DNA of 64,000 nt from positions 124,001 to 188,000 of the forward strand of contig JAFXGO010000030.1 of the NCBI GenBank assembly GCA_017520185.1. The letters run 5' to 3'. The position numbers were made by a program, and so were the translations under genes. Shown piece by piece: positions 1 to 59,995 of the stretch. The notes below the pieces were generated by a model. The model did not search any database and had not been told where the DNA came from. It was given only the letters and a program-made list of their open reading frames with translations. The stretch comes from Elusimicrobiaceae bacterium. Lineage in GTDB: Bacteria > Elusimicrobiota > Elusimicrobia > Elusimicrobiales > Elusimicrobiaceae. The stretch's first letter is position 1. The number at the start of each line of letters is the position of its first letter.

Positions 1-931
1 CGCCCGGCAAGGGGGAGAACGGAATAATCGGGTTGACTTTGGTGGCCTCAGGCGGCAAGAAATAGTCTTTCATGCAGTCGCAGAACACATTTTCTGCTTC
101 TTGAATTTTCTTAGGATCAATGTCTAAGGTATATTCGCTTCCGCGCAAAGCATGCCACATGGTCAAGATGTCCGGTTGGCAGGTGCCGCCGGAAACGGGC
201 TGCATAGAGAGGTCCAAAGAATCGGCACCGTTTTCAATAGCAGCTAAACAGCAGGCAATAGCGTTGCCGGCGGTTTCGTGCGTATGGAAAACGATTTTGG
301 TACCTTCGGGTAAAAGTTTGCGGGCCATGGCAATTGTGCGACCAACGGTCACCGGAGTAGAGGTGCCGGAAGCGTCTTTAAAGCACACAGAATCAAACGG
401 TACACCGGCATCTAAAATGGAGCGCAATACTTTTTCGTAAAAAATTTCGTTATGGATTTGACCGGTGGTATCCCAGCCGGGAGCCAAAGACATCATGCTT
501 ACGCAGACTTCGTGTTTAAGGCCGGCTTCATGAATGCATTTACCGGAGTAGATGAGGTTGTTGACGTCGTTTAAAGCATCGAAGTTGCGAATAGTGGTGG
601 TGCCATGTTTTTTGAAAAGTTGAGCATGGGCTTTGATTACATCGGAGGATTGGCTTTCTAAGCCTACTACGTTTACGCCGCGTGCCAAAGTTTGCAAGTT
701 GGCATCGGGACCGGCGGTTTTGCGGAACGTGTCCATCATGTCAAAGGCGTTTTCATTGCAGTAGAAGTATAAAGCCTGAAAGCGCGCACTGCCGCCAAAT
801 TCTATGTGGTTGATGCCGGCATGTCTGGCAGCTTCCACGGCGGGCATAAAATCTTTGGTGAGTACGCGCGCACCATAGACAGATTGAAAGCCGTCACGGA
901 ACGCGGTGAGCATAAAATTAACTTTTTTCAT
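1..931 (-). CDS. oadA: Oxaloacetate decarboxylase / pyruvate carboxylase carboxyltransferase subunit, partial (3' end beyond window)
   Basis: This is the N-terminal 310 residues of a biotin-dependent carboxyltransferase, which moves the carboxyl group between oxaloacetate and biotin. The TIM-barrel family motifs are visible: RDGFQS at residues 12-17 (metal-binding Asp13), FKDASG with Lys185 as the expected carboxylated or catalytic lysine, an HTHETAGN stretch holding the metal-ligand histidines, and SGGTCQPD. The biotinyl domain, if present, lies beyond the left edge. The start is set by GAGGAAAA a few bases upstream of the ATG. It is the last visible gene of birA-oadG-oadA, which favours a membrane-linked Na+-pumping decarboxylase over a soluble pyruvate carboxylase. 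The beta subunit is not in view, so a pyruvate carboxylase B subunit remains possible. Confidence 0.88.
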   Translation of the reverse strand, partial: MKKVNFMLTAFRDGFQSVYGARVLTKDFMPAVEAARHAGINHIEFGGSARFQALYFYCNENAFDMMDTFRKTAGPDANLQTLARGVNVVGLESQSSDVIKAHAQLFKKHGTTTIRNFDALNDVNNLIYSGKCIHEAGLKHEVCVSMMSLAPGWDTTGQIHNEIFYEKVLRSILDAGVPFDSVCFKDASGTSTPVTVGRTIAMARKLLPEGTKIVFHTHETAGNAIACCLAAIENGADSLDLSMQPVSGGTCQPDILTMWHALRGSEYTLDIDPKKIQEAENVFCDCMKDYFLPPEATKVNPIIPFSPLPG

Positions 932-948
932 ATGTTTTCCTCGTTTAA

Positions 949-1182
949 TTATTTACCTTGAAATCTCTTCGCCGCCGCAATGGCAATGGCCACTAAGGCG
1001 TTATCCGCACTGGCGGCCGCCTTTTGTTGGGGCACTTGCTGCGGGAAATATTTTTCCATCACTTTTACCAGCAGACTCATGCCGTTCATAATCCATATCA
1101 TTACAAACAGGAATACGAACACGGTGAGCGTCCCGATAATAGTGATGTATACGCTTGACATCATTAGATTTTCTGCGTTCAT
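949..1182 (-). CDS. oadG: Oxaloacetate decarboxylase gamma-like small membrane subunit
   Basis: A 77-residue protein with one N-terminal transmembrane helix (about residues 10-32), a short basic/proline-containing linker (KYFPQQVPQQK) and an Ala-rich tail. This is the layout of OadG, the subunit that holds the decarboxylase complex together at the inner membrane. Identification rests on size, topology and position between birA and the carboxyltransferase gene; OadG sequences are poorly conserved. Its start overlaps the 3' end of birA by 4 bases (ATGA), so translation is probably coupled. Confidence 0.7.
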   Translation of the reverse strand: MNAENLMMSSVYITIIGTLTVFVFLFVMIWIMNGMSLLVKVMEKYFPQQVPQQKAAASADNALVAIAIAAAKRFQGK

Positions 1183-1880
1183 ACCATCATATCTCCTATT
1201 GATATTTCTATAAATCCTTCGGGGGTTTGTAAAACCAATTTGCCCTCGGGGGAAATCGTTTGTACCGCACCTATTACATTTTGCGCGGTATTTTTGATTT
1301 GTACCTTTTTTCCCACATAAGGAAAAAAGTTTAAATACTCATTGCGTATAAATCTAAATCCGCACTGTAATAGTTCTTCGTATTTATCGAAGAAACGGTT
1401 TAATATATCTTGTAAAAGAGCATCTTCGTTTGTGTGTATGTTTTGTAATGCCAGTGAGGTGGCAGGTTGACCGACATTTGCCAAGTCCTGCTGAGCGATA
1501 TTTAGCCCTACTCCAAGCACCAATCCTTCAAAGCCTTTTGGACTAAAAAGAGCCTCGCTTAAAATGCCGCAAATTTTCTGGCTATGGACTAATACGTCGT
1601 TGGGCCATTTCAAATGGCTTTCAGCCCCCAACTCACGCAAAGATTCGCACACGCATAGGGCCATCAGCTGTGTGAGATTGGGCAAAAAGTCGGTTTTTTG
1701 AGGCTTGAGTAAGAGTGAAAAATACAGCCCGCCTTCTTGGGAAATCCACTTACGGTCTAAACGTCCGCGTCCGGCAGTTTGTTGCCGCGCGATAATGACG
1801 GTTTGGTCGGCTAACAAAGAACAATTACGTTTTGCGTAAGCATTGGTAGAGTCTAGCACGTCAAAACGAAGAATTTGCAT
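1179..1880 (-). CDS. birA: Biotin--[acetyl-CoA carboxylase] ligase
   Basis: A 233-residue biotin protein ligase, which makes biotinyl-AMP and transfers biotin to a lysine of carrier domains. The conserved GRGRLDRKW loop lies at residues 37-45 (biotinyl-5'-AMP binding), followed by a LKWPNDV motif near residue 95 and a small C-terminal SH3-like domain. There is no N-terminal helix-turn-helix, so this is a ligase without the BirA repressor function. It heads an operon with oadG and oadA, and the likely substrate is the decarboxylase's own biotin domain. The start codon has no Shine-Dalgarno; a TGGTAAAAT element ends 7 bases upstream, so the mRNA may be leaderless. Confidence 0.93.
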   Translation of the reverse strand: MQILRFDVLDSTNAYAKRNCSLLADQTVIIARQQTAGRGRLDRKWISQEGGLYFSLLLKPQKTDFLPNLTQLMALCVCESLRELGAESHLKWPNDVLVHSQKICGILSEALFSPKGFEGLVLGVGLNIAQQDLANVGQPATSLALQNIHTNEDALLQDILNRFFDKYEELLQCGFRFIRNEYLNFFPYVGKKVQIKNTAQNVIGAVQTISPEGKLVLQTPEGFIEISIGDMMV

Positions 1881-55405: not shown

Positions 55406-56515
55406 TTATAGACTTTTTTGATACAGACGGTATCGTTTTGTCTGGCGGCAGCCGGCTTCGGTCATGGCGCGGATAATACCGTCATTATCCTCTAAAATCC
55501 AAGAAAGTTCTGCTTCGTCCCAAATGGCTACCCCATAATCTACGATATGTTTGATCAGCACCAAATCAATGCCTCTTTTACGGTAGTTGGGGTCAATGCC
55601 CAGCATAATTAACCGCGCATCGCGAATTTTGGGCCATTTGAGCAAGGCTTTTACAGTGCGGAAAGGATTACACAAAGTGCCACGTAAAATTTGAAGCACG
55701 TGGTTCATATTCGCAATAGCAATATAAAATCCGGCCGGTACACCATCTACTTCGGCTATACAGGTGCCTTCCGGCTTTACAATCCATTTTAGTTCTTCTA
55801 CCATATCCTGAATTTCCTGTTCGGAAATGGGGGTGTGTCCCCAATTTGCGGCCCAAGCATCATTATAGATTTTACGAATGATAGATGCTTCTTGCTTTAA
55901 ATTTTTAAGGTTTAATCGGCGCAGGGTAAGCCCCTTTCCTCGTGCAGCGCGTGCGACAATTTTTTCAAATAGAGGGGAGAATTTGTCTTCTTTGCTGCGG
56001 TGAAAAGCCAGCAAATCTTTTACTTTACTAAATCCCTCTTTCTCAATTAACTCCATATAGTAAGGGTAATTGTAGGGCATCATGATAGAGGGCATAGCGT
56101 CAAAAGAGTCGGTCAATAAGCCATATACATGGTTGCTGGAAGGATTAGCCGGCCCGCGTACGGCCTCAACTCCTTGAGCGCGGAGCCATTTTTCACCTTC
56201 TGCAAACAGAGCATGTGCTACTTCCTGGTCATGGATGGCATCAAAAAATCCGAAAAACCCGATATTTTCTTTTTGATACTCATTGTACGTGTCATTAACC
56301 AAAGCACATAAGCGGCCTGCCACTTCACCGTCTTTGTACGCGAGCAGCAGTTTCCTTCTGGCGTGAGTCCAGAAGGCATTTTCCGGTTTTAAAAGTTTTA
56401 GGGTATCGGCTTTTAATTCACCCACCCAGTAGGGGTTGTTTTGATACAACCGGTAAGGAAAATGAATAAAAGTTTTTAAATCTTTTTCGGCGTCTTTGAT
56501 GACTATTTGACTCAT
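55406..56515 (-). CDS. GNAT-fold N-acyltransferase-like protein, candidate bacterial ceramide synthase
   Basis: A 369-residue protein whose N-terminal pattern (FIHFPYRLYQNNPYWVGELK, FFGFFDAIHD, VRGPANPS, MMPYNYPYYMELIEKEGF) belongs to a large family of GNAT-like proteins usually annotated as N-acetyltransferases. To my recollection this family includes the bacterial ceramide synthase. A GNAT acyl-CoA-loop-like LGIDPNYRKRGIDLVL lies near residue 310. It is encoded directly after the serine-palmitoyltransferase-like gene, the expected partner in N-acylating a sphingoid base. The start with GGAGAAG upstream lies well inside the longest frame. The specific reaction is inference. Confidence 0.65.
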   Translation of the reverse strand: MSQIVIKDAEKDLKTFIHFPYRLYQNNPYWVGELKADTLKLLKPENAFWTHARRKLLLAYKDGEVAGRLCALVNDTYNEYQKENIGFFGFFDAIHDQEVAHALFAEGEKWLRAQGVEAVRGPANPSSNHVYGLLTDSFDAMPSIMMPYNYPYYMELIEKEGFSKVKDLLAFHRSKEDKFSPLFEKIVARAARGKGLTLRRLNLKNLKQEASIIRKIYNDAWAANWGHTPISEQEIQDMVEELKWIVKPEGTCIAEVDGVPAGFYIAIANMNHVLQILRGTLCNPFRTVKALLKWPKIRDARLIMLGIDPNYRKRGIDLVLIKHIVDYGVAIWDEAELSWILEDNDGIIRAMTEAGCRQTKRYRLYQKSL

Positions 56516-56526
56516 ATCTTCTCCAA

Positions 56527-56556
56527 AAAGAAAACCCCTCCGACAAGAGGGGTTTT
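56527..56556 (-). terminator. Hairpin between the alpha-oxoamine synthase and acyltransferase genes
   Basis: A 10-bp AAAACCCCTC/GAGGGGTTTT stem with a 6-base loop; the minus-strand tail CTTTTTGG is short on T beyond the stem. Probably a partial terminator that lowers acyltransferase expression. Confidence 0.75.
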
Positions 56557-56564
56557 GTAAAAGA

Positions 56565-57755
56565 CTATTTAATAATGCCGATGGCACGACCCGCTTGGGC
56601 AAAGGCATCGATGATTTTTTGCACGTGTTCATCCGTATGCGTGGCCATCAAGGTTAAGCGCATTAAGGCTTTTCCGGGAGGAACGGCCGGGCTGACTACC
56701 GGATTGGAGAAAATGCCGAGTTCATGCAAGGCTCTCCACATACGGAAGCAGTTTTCGTTGCTGCCCACATGTACCGGAATGACCGGCGTGGTGCTGGTGC
56801 CTAAATCATAGCCCAAGTCACGCAAGCCCTTTTTCAAATTATCCGTCATGCGGAATAAATTATCGCGGCGGGAAGTATCATTTTCAATAAGTTCCAACGC
56901 TTTATTAATAGAAGCCACAGAAGCCGGAGGCAAAGCGGCGGAGAAAATTTGACTGCGTGCACTGTGACGGATGTAGTGGATAATATCAGCATCACCGACC
57001 ACAAAACCACCTACAGTCGCGAAGGTTTTGGAACAGGTGCCGACCACCAAATCCACTTCGCCGTTTTCTAAACCAAAGTGTTCACAGGTACCGCGACCGG
57101 TTTTGCCCAAAATACCGGTGGCATGAGCATCGTCTACAATAATGCGGGCGCCGTATTTTTTGCCGATTTTTACAATTTCCGGCAAGGGGCAGATGTCCCC
57201 TTCCATACTAAACACACCGTCTACAATAATGAGTTTACCTGCTTCTTCGGGCAATTTGGCGATAACGCGCTCTAAGTCGGCCGGATCATTATGTTTAAAG
57301 CGCACCATTTCACCATCGGAAAGTTTTACGCCGTCTAAAATGCTGGCATGGTTCAACTTGTCTACAATGGCGTAATCCCCTTTTTTCAAAAGACAACTGA
57401 CAACACCCAAATTCATTTGATATCCGGTGGAAAAGATAAGTCCGGCTTCTTTACGTTTGAAATTGGCGATGCGTTGCTCTAATTCATCTTGGGCTTTGGT
57501 ATTACCATTTAAAAAGCGAGAACCGGCACAACCCGTACCATATTTAAGGGCTGCTTCGGAGGCTGCTTTTTTCATTTCGGGATCATTGGCTAAGCCTAAG
57601 TAATTGTTGGAGCCGGCCATGATGTAGGTTTTTCCGTTTAAGACGATTTCAGGCCCTTGAGCCGATTCAATCGGTTGAAAATAGCCGTAAATGCCCATGC
57701 GCATGGCTATTTTGGCATCTTTAAAGTTTCTGCATTTTTCAAAAATATCAGACAT
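56565..57755 (-). CDS. Alpha-oxoamine synthase, serine palmitoyltransferase-like
   Basis: A 396-residue PLP enzyme that condenses an amino acid with an acyl-CoA. The internal aldimine is at Lys243 (GTCSKTFATVGGF), with cofactor residues His136 (LNHAS) and Asp208 (VDDAHATG). The pattern MGIYGYFQPIES, AGSNNYLGL, KYGTGCAGSRFLNG, VRFKHNDPADLE and LTLMATHT resembles Bacteroidetes serine palmitoyltransferases more than BioF or KBL, judged by eye. No biotin or threonine-degradation genes are adjacent; an acyltransferase is. SPT would make 3-ketosphinganine. KBL or BioF cannot be excluded. The start has AAGGAAAAG upstream. Confidence 0.78.
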   Translation of the reverse strand: MSDIFEKCRNFKDAKIAMRMGIYGYFQPIESAQGPEIVLNGKTYIMAGSNNYLGLANDPEMKKAASEAALKYGTGCAGSRFLNGNTKAQDELEQRIANFKRKEAGLIFSTGYQMNLGVVSCLLKKGDYAIVDKLNHASILDGVKLSDGEMVRFKHNDPADLERVIAKLPEEAGKLIIVDGVFSMEGDICPLPEIVKIGKKYGARIIVDDAHATGILGKTGRGTCEHFGLENGEVDLVVGTCSKTFATVGGFVVGDADIIHYIRHSARSQIFSAALPPASVASINKALELIENDTSRRDNLFRMTDNLKKGLRDLGYDLGTSTTPVIPVHVGSNENCFRMWRALHELGIFSNPVVSPAVPPGKALMRLTLMATHTDEHVQKIIDAFAQAGRAIGIIK

Positions 57756-57778
57756 GTTCTTTTCCTTTTTGTACAAAA

Positions 57779-58246
57779 CTACTTTTGTACTTTCTTAATA
57801 ATATTAGTAGTAGAGCGTCCTTTGAGTAAGGCAAAACGCACTACTTTTTTTGCAAATTCACGACCCACGATTTCACTGGGTTTATAATCTCCGCCTTTGA
57901 CTAATACATCGGGGCGGACAGATTTAATAAGGTTGTAAGGGGTGTCCTCCGTAAAAACAGACACCGCATCCACAGATTGCAATGCCGCCAATACAAGCGC
58001 GCGGTCAGATTGTTTATTAACCGGACGAGTGGGGCCTTTTAAACGGCGGACGGATTCATCGCTATTAATACCCACCACCAATACGTCCCCTTTGCTGCGA
58101 GAAAACTCCAACACGCTAACATGTCCGGCATGTAAAATATCAAAACAACCGTTTGTAAATACAATCTTTTTGCCGGCTTGTCGTTGTTTCTCTACCCAGT
58201 TGGAGAGTGCACGACGGCCTAAAATTTTATTTTTTGCTTTCGTCAT
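57779..58246 (-). CDS. rfaE2: D-glycero-beta-D-manno-heptose 1-phosphate adenylyltransferase (RfaE2-type)
   Basis: A 155-residue nucleotidyltransferase, equal to the C-terminal half of HldE. It makes ADP-heptose for LPS inner core. Signatures: FTNGCFDILHAGHVSVLE (HxGH), VGINSDESVRRLKG, and the C-terminal GRSTTNIIKK. It overlaps the end of accC by 20 bases and is followed after 23 bases by the alpha-oxoamine synthase, all in one operon devoted to lipid and envelope precursors. The kinase half (RfaE1) is not in this window. Confidence 0.9.
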   Translation of the reverse strand: MTKAKNKILGRRALSNWVEKQRQAGKKIVFTNGCFDILHAGHVSVLEFSRSKGDVLVVGINSDESVRRLKGPTRPVNKQSDRALVLAALQSVDAVSVFTEDTPYNLIKSVRPDVLVKGGDYKPSEIVGREFAKKVVRFALLKGRSTTNIIKKVQK

Positions 58247-59612
58247 TTTTTTCCGCCGTTAACATTCTTTCAATGAGTCCCGTATCCATATTTCCGGCAA
58301 TAAAATCTTCATTTTTCAAGATTTTCTGGTGAAAGGGAATCGTGGTTTTTACACCGGAAATTTTAAATTCGCCCAAGGCACGTTCGCTGCGTTTTAATAA
58401 TTCTTCGCGATTGGGGGCAGTGACAATTAACTTGGCAATTAAACTGTCATAATAACTGGGAATGGTATATCCCGTATACATATGACTGTCTACGCGAATG
58501 CCCAAACCGCCGGAAGGAATCCATTCTTCAATCGTTCCGGGACAGGGGGTAAAATTGTTATCGCTATCTTCGGCATTGATACGATGCTCCACCACATGAG
58601 CACGAACAACAGAGGCCTCTTGTTGTGTGATGGAAAGGGGCATTCCTTGTGCAATTTCAATTTGCAATTTTACTAAGTCTTGCCCACATACTTCTTCCGT
58701 CACGGGGTGTTCCACTTGAAGGCGAGTGTTTACTTCCATGAAATAAAAGTCTTTATTGGGGGCCATTAAAAATTCGACGGTTCCTACCCCATGATAGTTG
58801 GCGGCTTTGACTAATTTAACGGCCGCTTCCTGCAGTTTTTTGCGTACTTGTGCAGTGACAAAAGCGGAGGGGGATTGCTCCACCAATTTTTGATGTCTTC
58901 GTTGCATGCTGCAGTCACGCTCGGCAAAAGCAACAGCATTTCCGTAATTGTCTGCGGCTACTTGCACTTCAATATGGCGCGGATTTAATACTAACTTTTC
59001 AAAATAAACGCGATCATCGCCAAAATTGGCCTTTGCTTCGCCTTGAGCCGTTTTCATCATTAAGTCCAAATCTTTTTCAGACAAACAGGCGCGCATGCCT
59101 TTCCCGCCACCGCCCAAAGCTGCTTTAATCATGATGGGATAACCGATTTTGCGAGCGACTTCTTTATAATTTTTGCCCACCACACCGTCTGAACCCGGTG
59201 TAATGGCCACCCCACCTTTAATGGCTATTTCTCTGGCTGTACTTTTTACACCCAACATGCTGATAGATTTGGCAGTAGGGCCGATAAAAGTAATACCGGC
59301 TTTGGTGATAGCATCGGCAAAATCTGCGTTTTCAGATAAAAATCCATAACCGGGGTGAACGGCATCGGCCCCTGTTATTTTGGCAGCCGTCACTACGGCA
59401 TCGATATTTAAATAACTCAAAGAAGAAGGGGCCGCCCCGATGCATACTGCTTCATCGGCCATACGTACGTGCAGGCTGTTTCGGTCCGCTTCGGAATAAA
59501 TGGCTACTGATTTGATCCCCATTTCTTTAAGGGTACGAATCACGCGTAAGGCGATTTCTCCGCGATTGGCAATCAATACTTTTTTAAAAGGTTTAATGGT
59601 AATTTTAGCCAT
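58227..59612 (-). CDS. accC: Biotin carboxylase subunit of acetyl-CoA carboxylase
   Basis: A 461-residue ATP-grasp enzyme that carboxylates biotin on a carrier protein. Motifs: KVLIANRGEIALRVIR, HPGYGFLSENADFA, the Gly-rich ATP loop ALGGGGKGMRAC, YFEKLVLNPRHIEVQ, and FMEVNTRLQVEHPVTE. All catalytic parts look intact. AGAGGAC precedes the ATG. It is 8 bases downstream of the AccB homologue, which lacks the biotinylation lysine, so its true carrier must be another protein. Confidence 0.95.
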   Translation of the reverse strand: MAKITIKPFKKVLIANRGEIALRVIRTLKEMGIKSVAIYSEADRNSLHVRMADEAVCIGAAPSSLSYLNIDAVVTAAKITGADAVHPGYGFLSENADFADAITKAGITFIGPTAKSISMLGVKSTAREIAIKGGVAITPGSDGVVGKNYKEVARKIGYPIMIKAALGGGGKGMRACLSEKDLDLMMKTAQGEAKANFGDDRVYFEKLVLNPRHIEVQVAADNYGNAVAFAERDCSMQRRHQKLVEQSPSAFVTAQVRKKLQEAAVKLVKAANYHGVGTVEFLMAPNKDFYFMEVNTRLQVEHPVTEEVCGQDLVKLQIEIAQGMPLSITQQEASVVRAHVVEHRINAEDSDNNFTPCPGTIEEWIPSGGLGIRVDSHMYTGYTIPSYYDSLIAKLIVTAPNREELLKRSERALGEFKISGVKTTIPFHQKILKNEDFIAGNMDTGLIERMLTAEKNDESKK

Positions 59613-59620
59613 ATTGTCCT

Positions 59621-59995
59621 CTAGGGTTCAATAAAGAAAAGAGGTTGGCCAAATTCTGCAGGCTTGCCGTCCTCAATGGAAATAATACGCAACACTCCGG
59701 ACACGGGGGCAGGGACAACATGTTTCTCAAAGGCACTTTCAATCAGGCCTAAAGACTGCCCTTCTTTGACGTTTTGCCCTTCTTTTAAAGATAAATTTTT
59801 TCCTTTGTCAGCCCCATGATAGATGCCTAAGGCGGGAGCCGTCACTGCCGTTAAATGACAAGTAAATTTAGCAGGTTCCGGCAGTGCTTGCCGAGTTTTA
59901 ATCTCAATGCAATTATGATCTTTTTGATAGCAAAACTCGGCCAAATCGGTCGTTTTAAGCCAGTCGGTAATTTCGGTAATAAGTTTGGTGTCCAT
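59621..59995 (-). CDS. accB: AccB-like carrier protein lacking the biotinyl-lysine
   Basis: A 124-residue BCCP homologue. The N-terminal helix (ITDWLKTTDLAEF...IEIKT) and the C-terminal biotinyl-domain fold (LKEGQNVKEGQSLGLIE, PVSGVLRIISIEDGKPAEFG) align with AccB without gaps. The hairpin that should read EAMKM instead reads ESAFE (residues 86-90): Phe89 replaces the biotinylated Lys, and the flanking Met residues are lost. Lys91 is two positions off. It therefore cannot be a normal biotin carrier. It heads the operon with accC and has a GAGG ribosome site. It may be a structural or regulatory subunit like the plant BADC proteins. Confidence 0.85.
   Translation of the reverse strand: MDTKLITEITDWLKTTDLAEFCYQKDHNCIEIKTRQALPEPAKFTCHLTAVTAPALGIYHGADKGKNLSLKEGQNVKEGQSLGLIESAFEKHVVPAPVSGVLRIISIEDGKPAEFGQPLFFIEP

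What the first reader, a model, noticed from the sequence alone, without database searches (positions are those of the whole stretch)
59621..59995. AccB homologue next to accC has Phe in place of the biotinylated lysine
Seen: the C-terminal domain aligns gap-free with BCCP on both sides of the hairpin (GLIE before, PVSG-IEDGKPAEFG after), but EAMKM is replaced by ESAFE, with Phe89 at the Lys position. The frame and operon position are intact, so it is not a decayed gene. Known: plants have BADC proteins, BCCP paralogues lacking the biotinyl-Lys that occupy ACCase and down-regulate it. Inference: this could be a bacterial BADC-like regulator or structural spacer, with the real biotin carrier encoded elsewhere or supplied by the decarboxylase complex.
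Basis: partly seen in the sequence, partly recalled or inferred. Interest (0 to 1): 0.78.

Follow-up and report, generated by a model that had tools for sequence, protein, structure and literature searches.

The report
Lysine-less biotin-carrier partner in Elusimicrobia
A gut Elusimicrobia genome, like its whole genus, encodes beside the biotin carboxylase gene a well-conserved copy of the biotin carrier of fatty-acid synthesis that can no longer hold biotin, while a normal biotin carrier sits elsewhere; it looks like a bacterial, independently evolved counterpart of the plant BADC proteins.

Summary
The 124-aa ORF (59621-59995, minus) is a BCCP-type protein directly upstream of accC with Phe89 (TTT) where the biotinyl-Lys belongs. 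It is neither an error nor a decaying gene. All 59 distinct orthologues examined in the genus sit immediately upstream of accC and have S/A/T/G/F there, never Lys; pairwise dN/dS is about 0.03-0.09.

The genome has one biotin carboxylase, one unlinked canonical BCCP (166 aa, EAMKV), and a single PccB-type carboxyltransferase instead of AccA/AccD. Two BCCPs occur throughout the phylum Elusimicrobiota. BCCP-A is unlinked and always EAMK. BCCP-B is accC-linked and still EAMK in most outgroup families. One clade covering most of the class lost the AMK motif once, on a long stem (support 100/100), and shortened the swinging linker (median 41/33 to 19 residues). Lys to Arg/Gln changes occur in five further single genomes.

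Best reading: a non-biotinylated partner subunit of the AccC/BCCP-A complex, under purifying selection, that works like plant BADC (assembly glue and/or regulator) and evolved separately. Lack of biotin is very likely; the role in the complex is inferred. Sub-lineages with Lys in an odd context (EVGKD, EMNKT) remain open. I found no bacterial BADC in the papers searched.

The parts
59621..59995 (-). BCCP-B: 124-aa BCCP paralogue without the biotinyl-lysine
   Evidence: ORF; Pfam Biotin_lipoyl 1.4e-9; structure match Z 14.1 to E. coli BCCP; conserved in the genus
59894..59995 (-). N-terminal module (residues 1-34): helix 3-13 plus strands 18-24 and 29-34, with W12, T16-D17-L18 and E20 near-invariant in the degenerate clade
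   Evidence: AlphaFold model; conservation; weak ungapped match to the E. coli BCCP N-terminus (5.4 bits)
59627..59854 (-). Barrel domain (residues 48-123), biotinyl-domain fold with thumb region
59726..59740 (-). Degenerate hairpin ESAFE (residues 86-90) in place of EAMKV/EAMKM; Phe89 codon TTT at 59729-59731
58227..59612 (-). accC, the only biotin carboxylase of the genome, 8 bases downstream
   Evidence: TIGR00514 641.5 bits against cut-off 626.5; single PF02785 match in the genome
57779..58246 (-). RfaE2/HldE-type nucleotidyltransferase-like ORF overlapping the end of accC; the same neighbour follows accC in an f2 genome
   Evidence: function named from sequence resemblance only
1179..1880 (-). 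BirA-type biotin ligase (233 aa), so biotinylation machinery is present
   Evidence: PF03099 E 3.0e-22, ORF
2..931 (-). First part of an oxaloacetate-decarboxylase-type alpha subunit; its biotin domain (EAMKM) lies just outside the window

Best explanation
The protein is BCCP-B, a second BCCP that stayed next to accC, lost its biotin attachment site and its long linker, and is kept as a non-catalytic subunit. Most likely its N-terminal module and barrel still bind AccC and/or co-oligomerise with the biotinylated BCCP-A; there it takes up one or more carrier positions in the AccC-BCCP assembly, stabilising it (glue) and possibly setting the fraction of productive carriers. Shown here: the missing Lys, conservation, fold, linkage to accC, the co-existing canonical BCCP-A, and descent from a biotinylatable accC-linked BCCP. 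Inferred: absence of biotin on the protein, binding to AccC and BCCP-A, and the effect on activity.
For: Non-Lys in 59/59 distinct sequences of the genus, all directly upstream of accC with gaps of -7 to 14 bases; purifying selection with dN/dS 0.03-0.09; present in nearly every class genome (229/235 with a match) together with a canonical BCCP-A (208/235; 135 of 138 good-quality genomes; all EAMK in the rows compared); a single AccC in the genome, so both BCCPs must share it; BCCP fold kept; linker shortened to 17-24 residues against 27-46 (canonical BCCP-B) and 25-59 (BCCP-A), which fits a fixed rather than a swinging domain; hairpin among the most variable parts while the N-module and C-terminal strand are near-invariant; loss of AMK mapped to one stem, 100/100. 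Plant precedent: BADC lacks AMKL, binds BC and BCCP, and acts as glue (PMC11926652).
Against: No interaction, biotinylation or activity data. Relatives in f2 (22 of 25 sequences) and in f1 genera g5 and g6 have a Lys at the site in a non-canonical context, so modification is not excluded for the whole clade. In f2 and in genera g3 and g4 another gene stands between BCCP-B and accC.
Confidence: 0.62

Rival explanations
1. Inhibitor/regulator in the strict sense (the original BADC model): BCCP-B competes with BCCP-A for AccC, and its level throttles malonyl-CoA synthesis, rather than being a required structural subunit.
For: Same sequence facts as the best explanation: a carrier-shaped protein that cannot carry, made next to AccC. 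Inhibitor models of BADC are reported in plants (cited in PMC11926652).
Against: Fixed tight linkage with accC at near-constant spacing suggests a constant subunit ratio rather than a variable inhibitor; the 2025 plant data argue against the inhibitory model.
Confidence: 0.18
2. Specificity or docking subunit: BCCP-B tethers the single AccC to another partner, such as the PccB-type carboxyltransferase or the decarboxylase-type biotin protein, instead of acting on BCCP-A.
For: One AccC must serve all biotin proteins of the genome, and the genome has only a PccB-type carboxyltransferase, whose usual partners carry extra docking domains (the docking point is from general knowledge). Non-catalytic subunits exist in bacterial acyl-CoA carboxylases (PMC7835884 abstract; PMC11926652).
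Against: No linkage of BCCP-B to those genes; no sequence feature points to them.
Confidence: 0.14
3. Still modified: another Lys near the turn (K91 in the window, the in-place Lys in f2, g5 and g6) is biotinylated or lipoylated and BCCP-B is a divergent working carrier.
For: Lys at the exact site in all 14 g5, the one g6 and 22 of 25 f2 sequences; BirA and two further BPL/LplA/LipB-family proteins are present.
Against: In the window's genus the site is never Lys and K91 is not invariant; Met at -1 is missing in all but one degenerate-clade sequence; linker shortened.
Confidence: 0.04
4. Decaying leftover of a duplicated accB gene.
For: The catalytic residue is gone.
Against: dN/dS 0.03-0.09; present in nearly every genome of the class; the whole genus lacks Lys yet keeps the frame and fold.
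Confidence: 0.02

Closest known systems
BADC1-3 (biotin attachment domain-containing proteins) of the plant plastid heteromeric ACCase
   Same: BCCP paralogue lacking the biotinylation motif, kept alongside a working BCCP in an organism with a separate-subunit biotin carboxylase; 35% identity to the own BCCP-A in the barrel, against 25-30% for BADC and BCCP (PMC11926652)
   Different: Bacterial, gene next to accC, nested inside an accC-linked BCCP family of Elusimicrobiota, so most likely a separate origin; binding and function untested; the carboxyltransferase of this genome is PccB-type, not CT-alpha/CT-beta
AccB / BCCP of bacterial ACC (E. coli 4hr7, 1bdo; TIGR00531)
   Same: Fold (Z 14.1), N-terminal module plus barrel order, place next to accC
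   Different: No biotinyl-Lys, no AMK motif, linker about half as long or less, model score far under the family cut-off (40.0 against 115.2 bits)
Epsilon-type non-catalytic subunits of actinobacterial acyl-CoA carboxylases
   Same: Non-catalytic subunit that helps a bacterial biotin enzyme to assemble (cited in PMC11926652; PMC7835884)
   Different: To my knowledge not BCCP-derived; no sequence comparison was made here
Chloroflexus aurantiacus BC1 with fused BCCP (PMC11077971)
   Same: A bacterial case in which BCCP-derived parts hold biotin carboxylase dimers together in a tetramer, beyond carrying biotin (abstract)
   Different: That BCCP domain is biotinylated (Lys553) and fused to the carboxylase

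Membership tests
AccB/BCCP (functional biotin carrier) | Biotinyl-Lys in an (E)AMK(M/V) hairpin | tested here: not met
   Phe89; 59/59 non-Lys in the genus
AccB/BCCP (functional biotin carrier) | Biotinyl-domain barrel with thumb | tested here: met
   Pfam 1.4e-9; Z 14.1 to E. coli BCCP, with thumb-bearing BCCPs ranked first
AccB/BCCP (functional biotin carrier) | N-terminal module homologous to E. coli BCCP residues 1-35 | tested here: inconclusive
   Ungapped alignment of profile positions 1-37 but only 5.4 bits; helix plus two strands predicted
AccB/BCCP (functional biotin carrier) | Long flexible linker | tested here: not met
   17-24 residues in the degenerate clade against 25-59 in BCCP-A and 27-46 in canonical BCCP-B
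AccB/BCCP (functional biotin carrier) | NCBIfam TIGR00531 score above cut-off | tested here: not met
   40.0 against 115.2 bits; note that the genome's own true BCCP-A also falls short, at 102.5
BADC | BCCP-like fold without the AMK(L) motif | tested here: met
BADC | Co-exists with a functional-type BCCP in the same genome | tested here: met
BADC | Binds BC and BCCP and changes ACC assembly or activity | not testable with these tools
   needs co-purification and reconstitution
BADC | Common ancestry with plant BADC, apart from BCCP | not tested
   Plant sequences were not in the tree; inside the phylum it groups with accC-linked BCCP-B, so separate origin is inferred

The most novel reading that the evidence does not exclude
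In the phylum Elusimicrobiota the carboxylase is built on two different BCCPs: BCCP-A as mobile carrier and BCCP-B as AccC-bound core. Because the core role does not need biotin, the Lys of BCCP-B has been lost repeatedly: once with motif and linker in the clade that covers most of class Elusimicrobia, and by Lys to Arg/Gln in at least five other lineages. This gives bacterial BADC-like subunits by convergence with plants.
Probability: 0.45. Interest if true: 0.75.

Novelty: new variant of a known kind. Interest (0 to 1): 0.64.

Why it matters
BADC has been described as unique to the plant enzyme (PMC11926652), and whether it is an inhibitor or an assembly factor is disputed. A bacterial case with a graded series (canonical, Arg/Gln, eroded motif, Lys-free) would give an independent and simpler system in which to separate the two models, and suggests that a structural role of BCCP oligomers can outlive the carrier role. 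It also warns that proteins named BCCP or AccB by homology may not carry biotin. If G067 is the cultured Elusimicrobium minutum (a guess from genome size), the test is feasible in a cultured organism.

Tried and rejected
Sequencing error or decay: rejected. Missing true BCCP in the genome: rejected, BCCP-A found. A second biotin carboxylase or separate AccA/AccD proteins: none found in this 95%-complete assembly; the weak PF03255 matches fall inside the PccB-type ORF. Biotin on K91: judged unlikely. Literature: searches for inactive, pseudo- or non-biotinylated BCCP or BADC-like proteins in bacteria found none; subscription papers are not held, so this is a limited negative. N-module fold: most PDB matches spanned only residues 46-124, so its homology rests on the weak ungapped alignment and on the TD(I/L)xE signature shared with canonical BCCP-B. 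The Arg/Gln cases (L243, L245, L247, L250, L158) are single genomes and were not checked against other assemblies. Row L215 (family f11) has a very long branch and its position is not trusted.

Full report
Observation. The ORF 59621..59995 (minus) encodes 124 aa, followed after 8 bases by accC. Pfam gives Biotin_lipoyl at E 1.4e-9; NCBIfam's BCCP model matches but far under its cut-off (40.0 against 115.2 bits). The motif ESAFE occupies the EAMKV/M hairpin without gaps, and Phe89 (codon TTT, 59729-59731) takes the Lys column. An AlphaFold model from 56 orthologues (pLDDT 84) places the turn at residues 87-90 of a barrel that best matches E. coli BCCP 4hr7/1bdo (Z 14.1) and Arabidopsis BCCP1 9a87 (Z 13.6).

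Genome context. The window is part of a 1.4-Mb, 34-contig genome; relatives with titles are Elusimicrobiaceae, many from animal guts. The genome encodes a second, canonical BCCP (166 aa, EAMKV, C34:7977-8477, called BCCP-A here), an oxaloacetate-decarboxylase-type alpha subunit with EAMKM, and a GcvH. It has one biotin carboxylase, one PccB-type carboxyltransferase of 534 aa next to a polyketide-synthase-like and a phosphopantetheinyl-transferase-like gene, no separate AccA/AccD, and a BirA-type ligase at window 1179-1880.

Conservation. A protein search over the 90 genomes of the family found a match in each, in G034 only through its BCCP-A; a profile search found matches in 229 of 235 genomes of the class. 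In the window's genus 59 distinct sequences carry S (49), A (4), G (3), T (2) or F (1) at the site, and all lie -7 to 14 bases upstream of accC. Pairwise dN/dS is 0.03-0.09 (Nei-Gojobori; some dS values are near saturation). BCCP-A is found in 208 of 235 class genomes and in 135 of 138 of good quality; all 37 distinct BCCP-A sequences compared first have Lys, as do the BCCP-A rows of the other classes in the tree.

Evolution. Both BCCPs are phylum-wide. In other classes and in families f5-f8 the accC-linked BCCP-B has EAMK, ECMK or ETMK, except for Arg in four genomes and Gln in one. The tree, built without the motif columns, splits A from B (100/99) and joins the degenerate BCCP-B of f1, f2 and f9-f15 in one clade (100/100) on a stem of 1.19 changes per column, with all canonical BCCP-B outside it (a quicker tree agrees). 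The Lys state changes 14 times in B, whereas erosion of the motif needs one event on that stem. Within the degenerate clade Lys stands at the site in 22 of 25 f2 sequences and in f1 genera g5 and g6, but in contexts such as EVGKD and EMNKT; whether it was kept or regained, and whether it is modified, is unresolved. Together with the motif the linker shortened: residues between N-module and barrel are 17-24 (median 19), against 27-46 (median 33) in canonical BCCP-B and 25-59 (median 41) in BCCP-A. The hairpin is now among the most variable stretches, while W12, T16-D17-L18, E20, G57, L82-G83 and the C-terminal LFFIE are near-invariant. In f2 and in genera g3 and g4 another gene, with a zinc-ribbon-like start, sits between BCCP-B and accC.

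Mechanism. Shown: no attachment Lys, conserved fold, selection, linkage, co-existing carrier, descent from a biotinylatable form. Inferred: the protein is a non-catalytic subunit that binds AccC and/or BCCP-A. I favour an assembly role (0.62) over strict inhibition (0.18) because of the fixed spacing with accC and the plant precedent, where BADC lacks AMKL, binds BC and BCCP, and is argued to act as glue (PMC11926652). Docking of AccC to other partners (0.14) is open, since one AccC serves all biotin proteins of this genome.

Known or new. It resembles BADC in the sequence features tested; membership by descent was not tested, and separate origin is inferred from the phylum tree. The plant paper calls BADC unique to the plant enzyme, and searches of the held papers found no bacterial counterpart, a limited negative. 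A 2011 survey with one Elusimicrobia genome lists homologues in only two of its carboxylase columns (PMC3199775). I rate it a new variant of a known kind.

Limits. Most genomes are metagenome-assembled. No data on modification, interaction or activity exist here. The Arg/Gln cases are single genomes. In part of f9-f15 accC lay beyond the short loci; longer ones showed it about 1.9-2.0 kb downstream in three genomes. The identity of G067 with Elusimicrobium minutum Pei191 is a guess from its single 1.64-Mb contig.

Noticed in passing
L126:4382-6097 (+) and L051:1609-3354 (-): In f2 and in f1 genera g3 and g4 a gene of about 570-580 aa with a zinc-ribbon-like N-terminus and a membrane-like segment lies between BCCP-B and accC; in the window's genus it is absent and the two genes abut.
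   Followed up: partly
L170:3-5398 (G000 C30 about 207000-212400): The only carboxyltransferase of the genome (PccB-type, 534 aa) follows a polyketide-synthase/dehydratase-like gene and a phosphopantetheinyl-transferase-like gene, which hints that its product may feed a PKS/PUFA-type lipid pathway.
   Followed up: no
L243, L245, L247, L250, L158: Single genomes in other classes and in family f7 have EAMR, ETMR or EAMQ in an otherwise canonical accC-linked BCCP-B: Lys alone replaced, motif intact.
   Followed up: partly
L215 (family f11, G173): A very divergent, short accC-linked BCCP-like protein (VEGAAEK at the hairpin) on an extremely long branch; its placement is unsure.
   Followed up: no
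window 55406-57776 (minus): Two ORFs, one resembling a glycine C-acetyltransferase/KBL-type enzyme and one an acetyltransferase-like protein, overlap by 68 bases as called; the true start of the second is probably further in.
   Followed up: no
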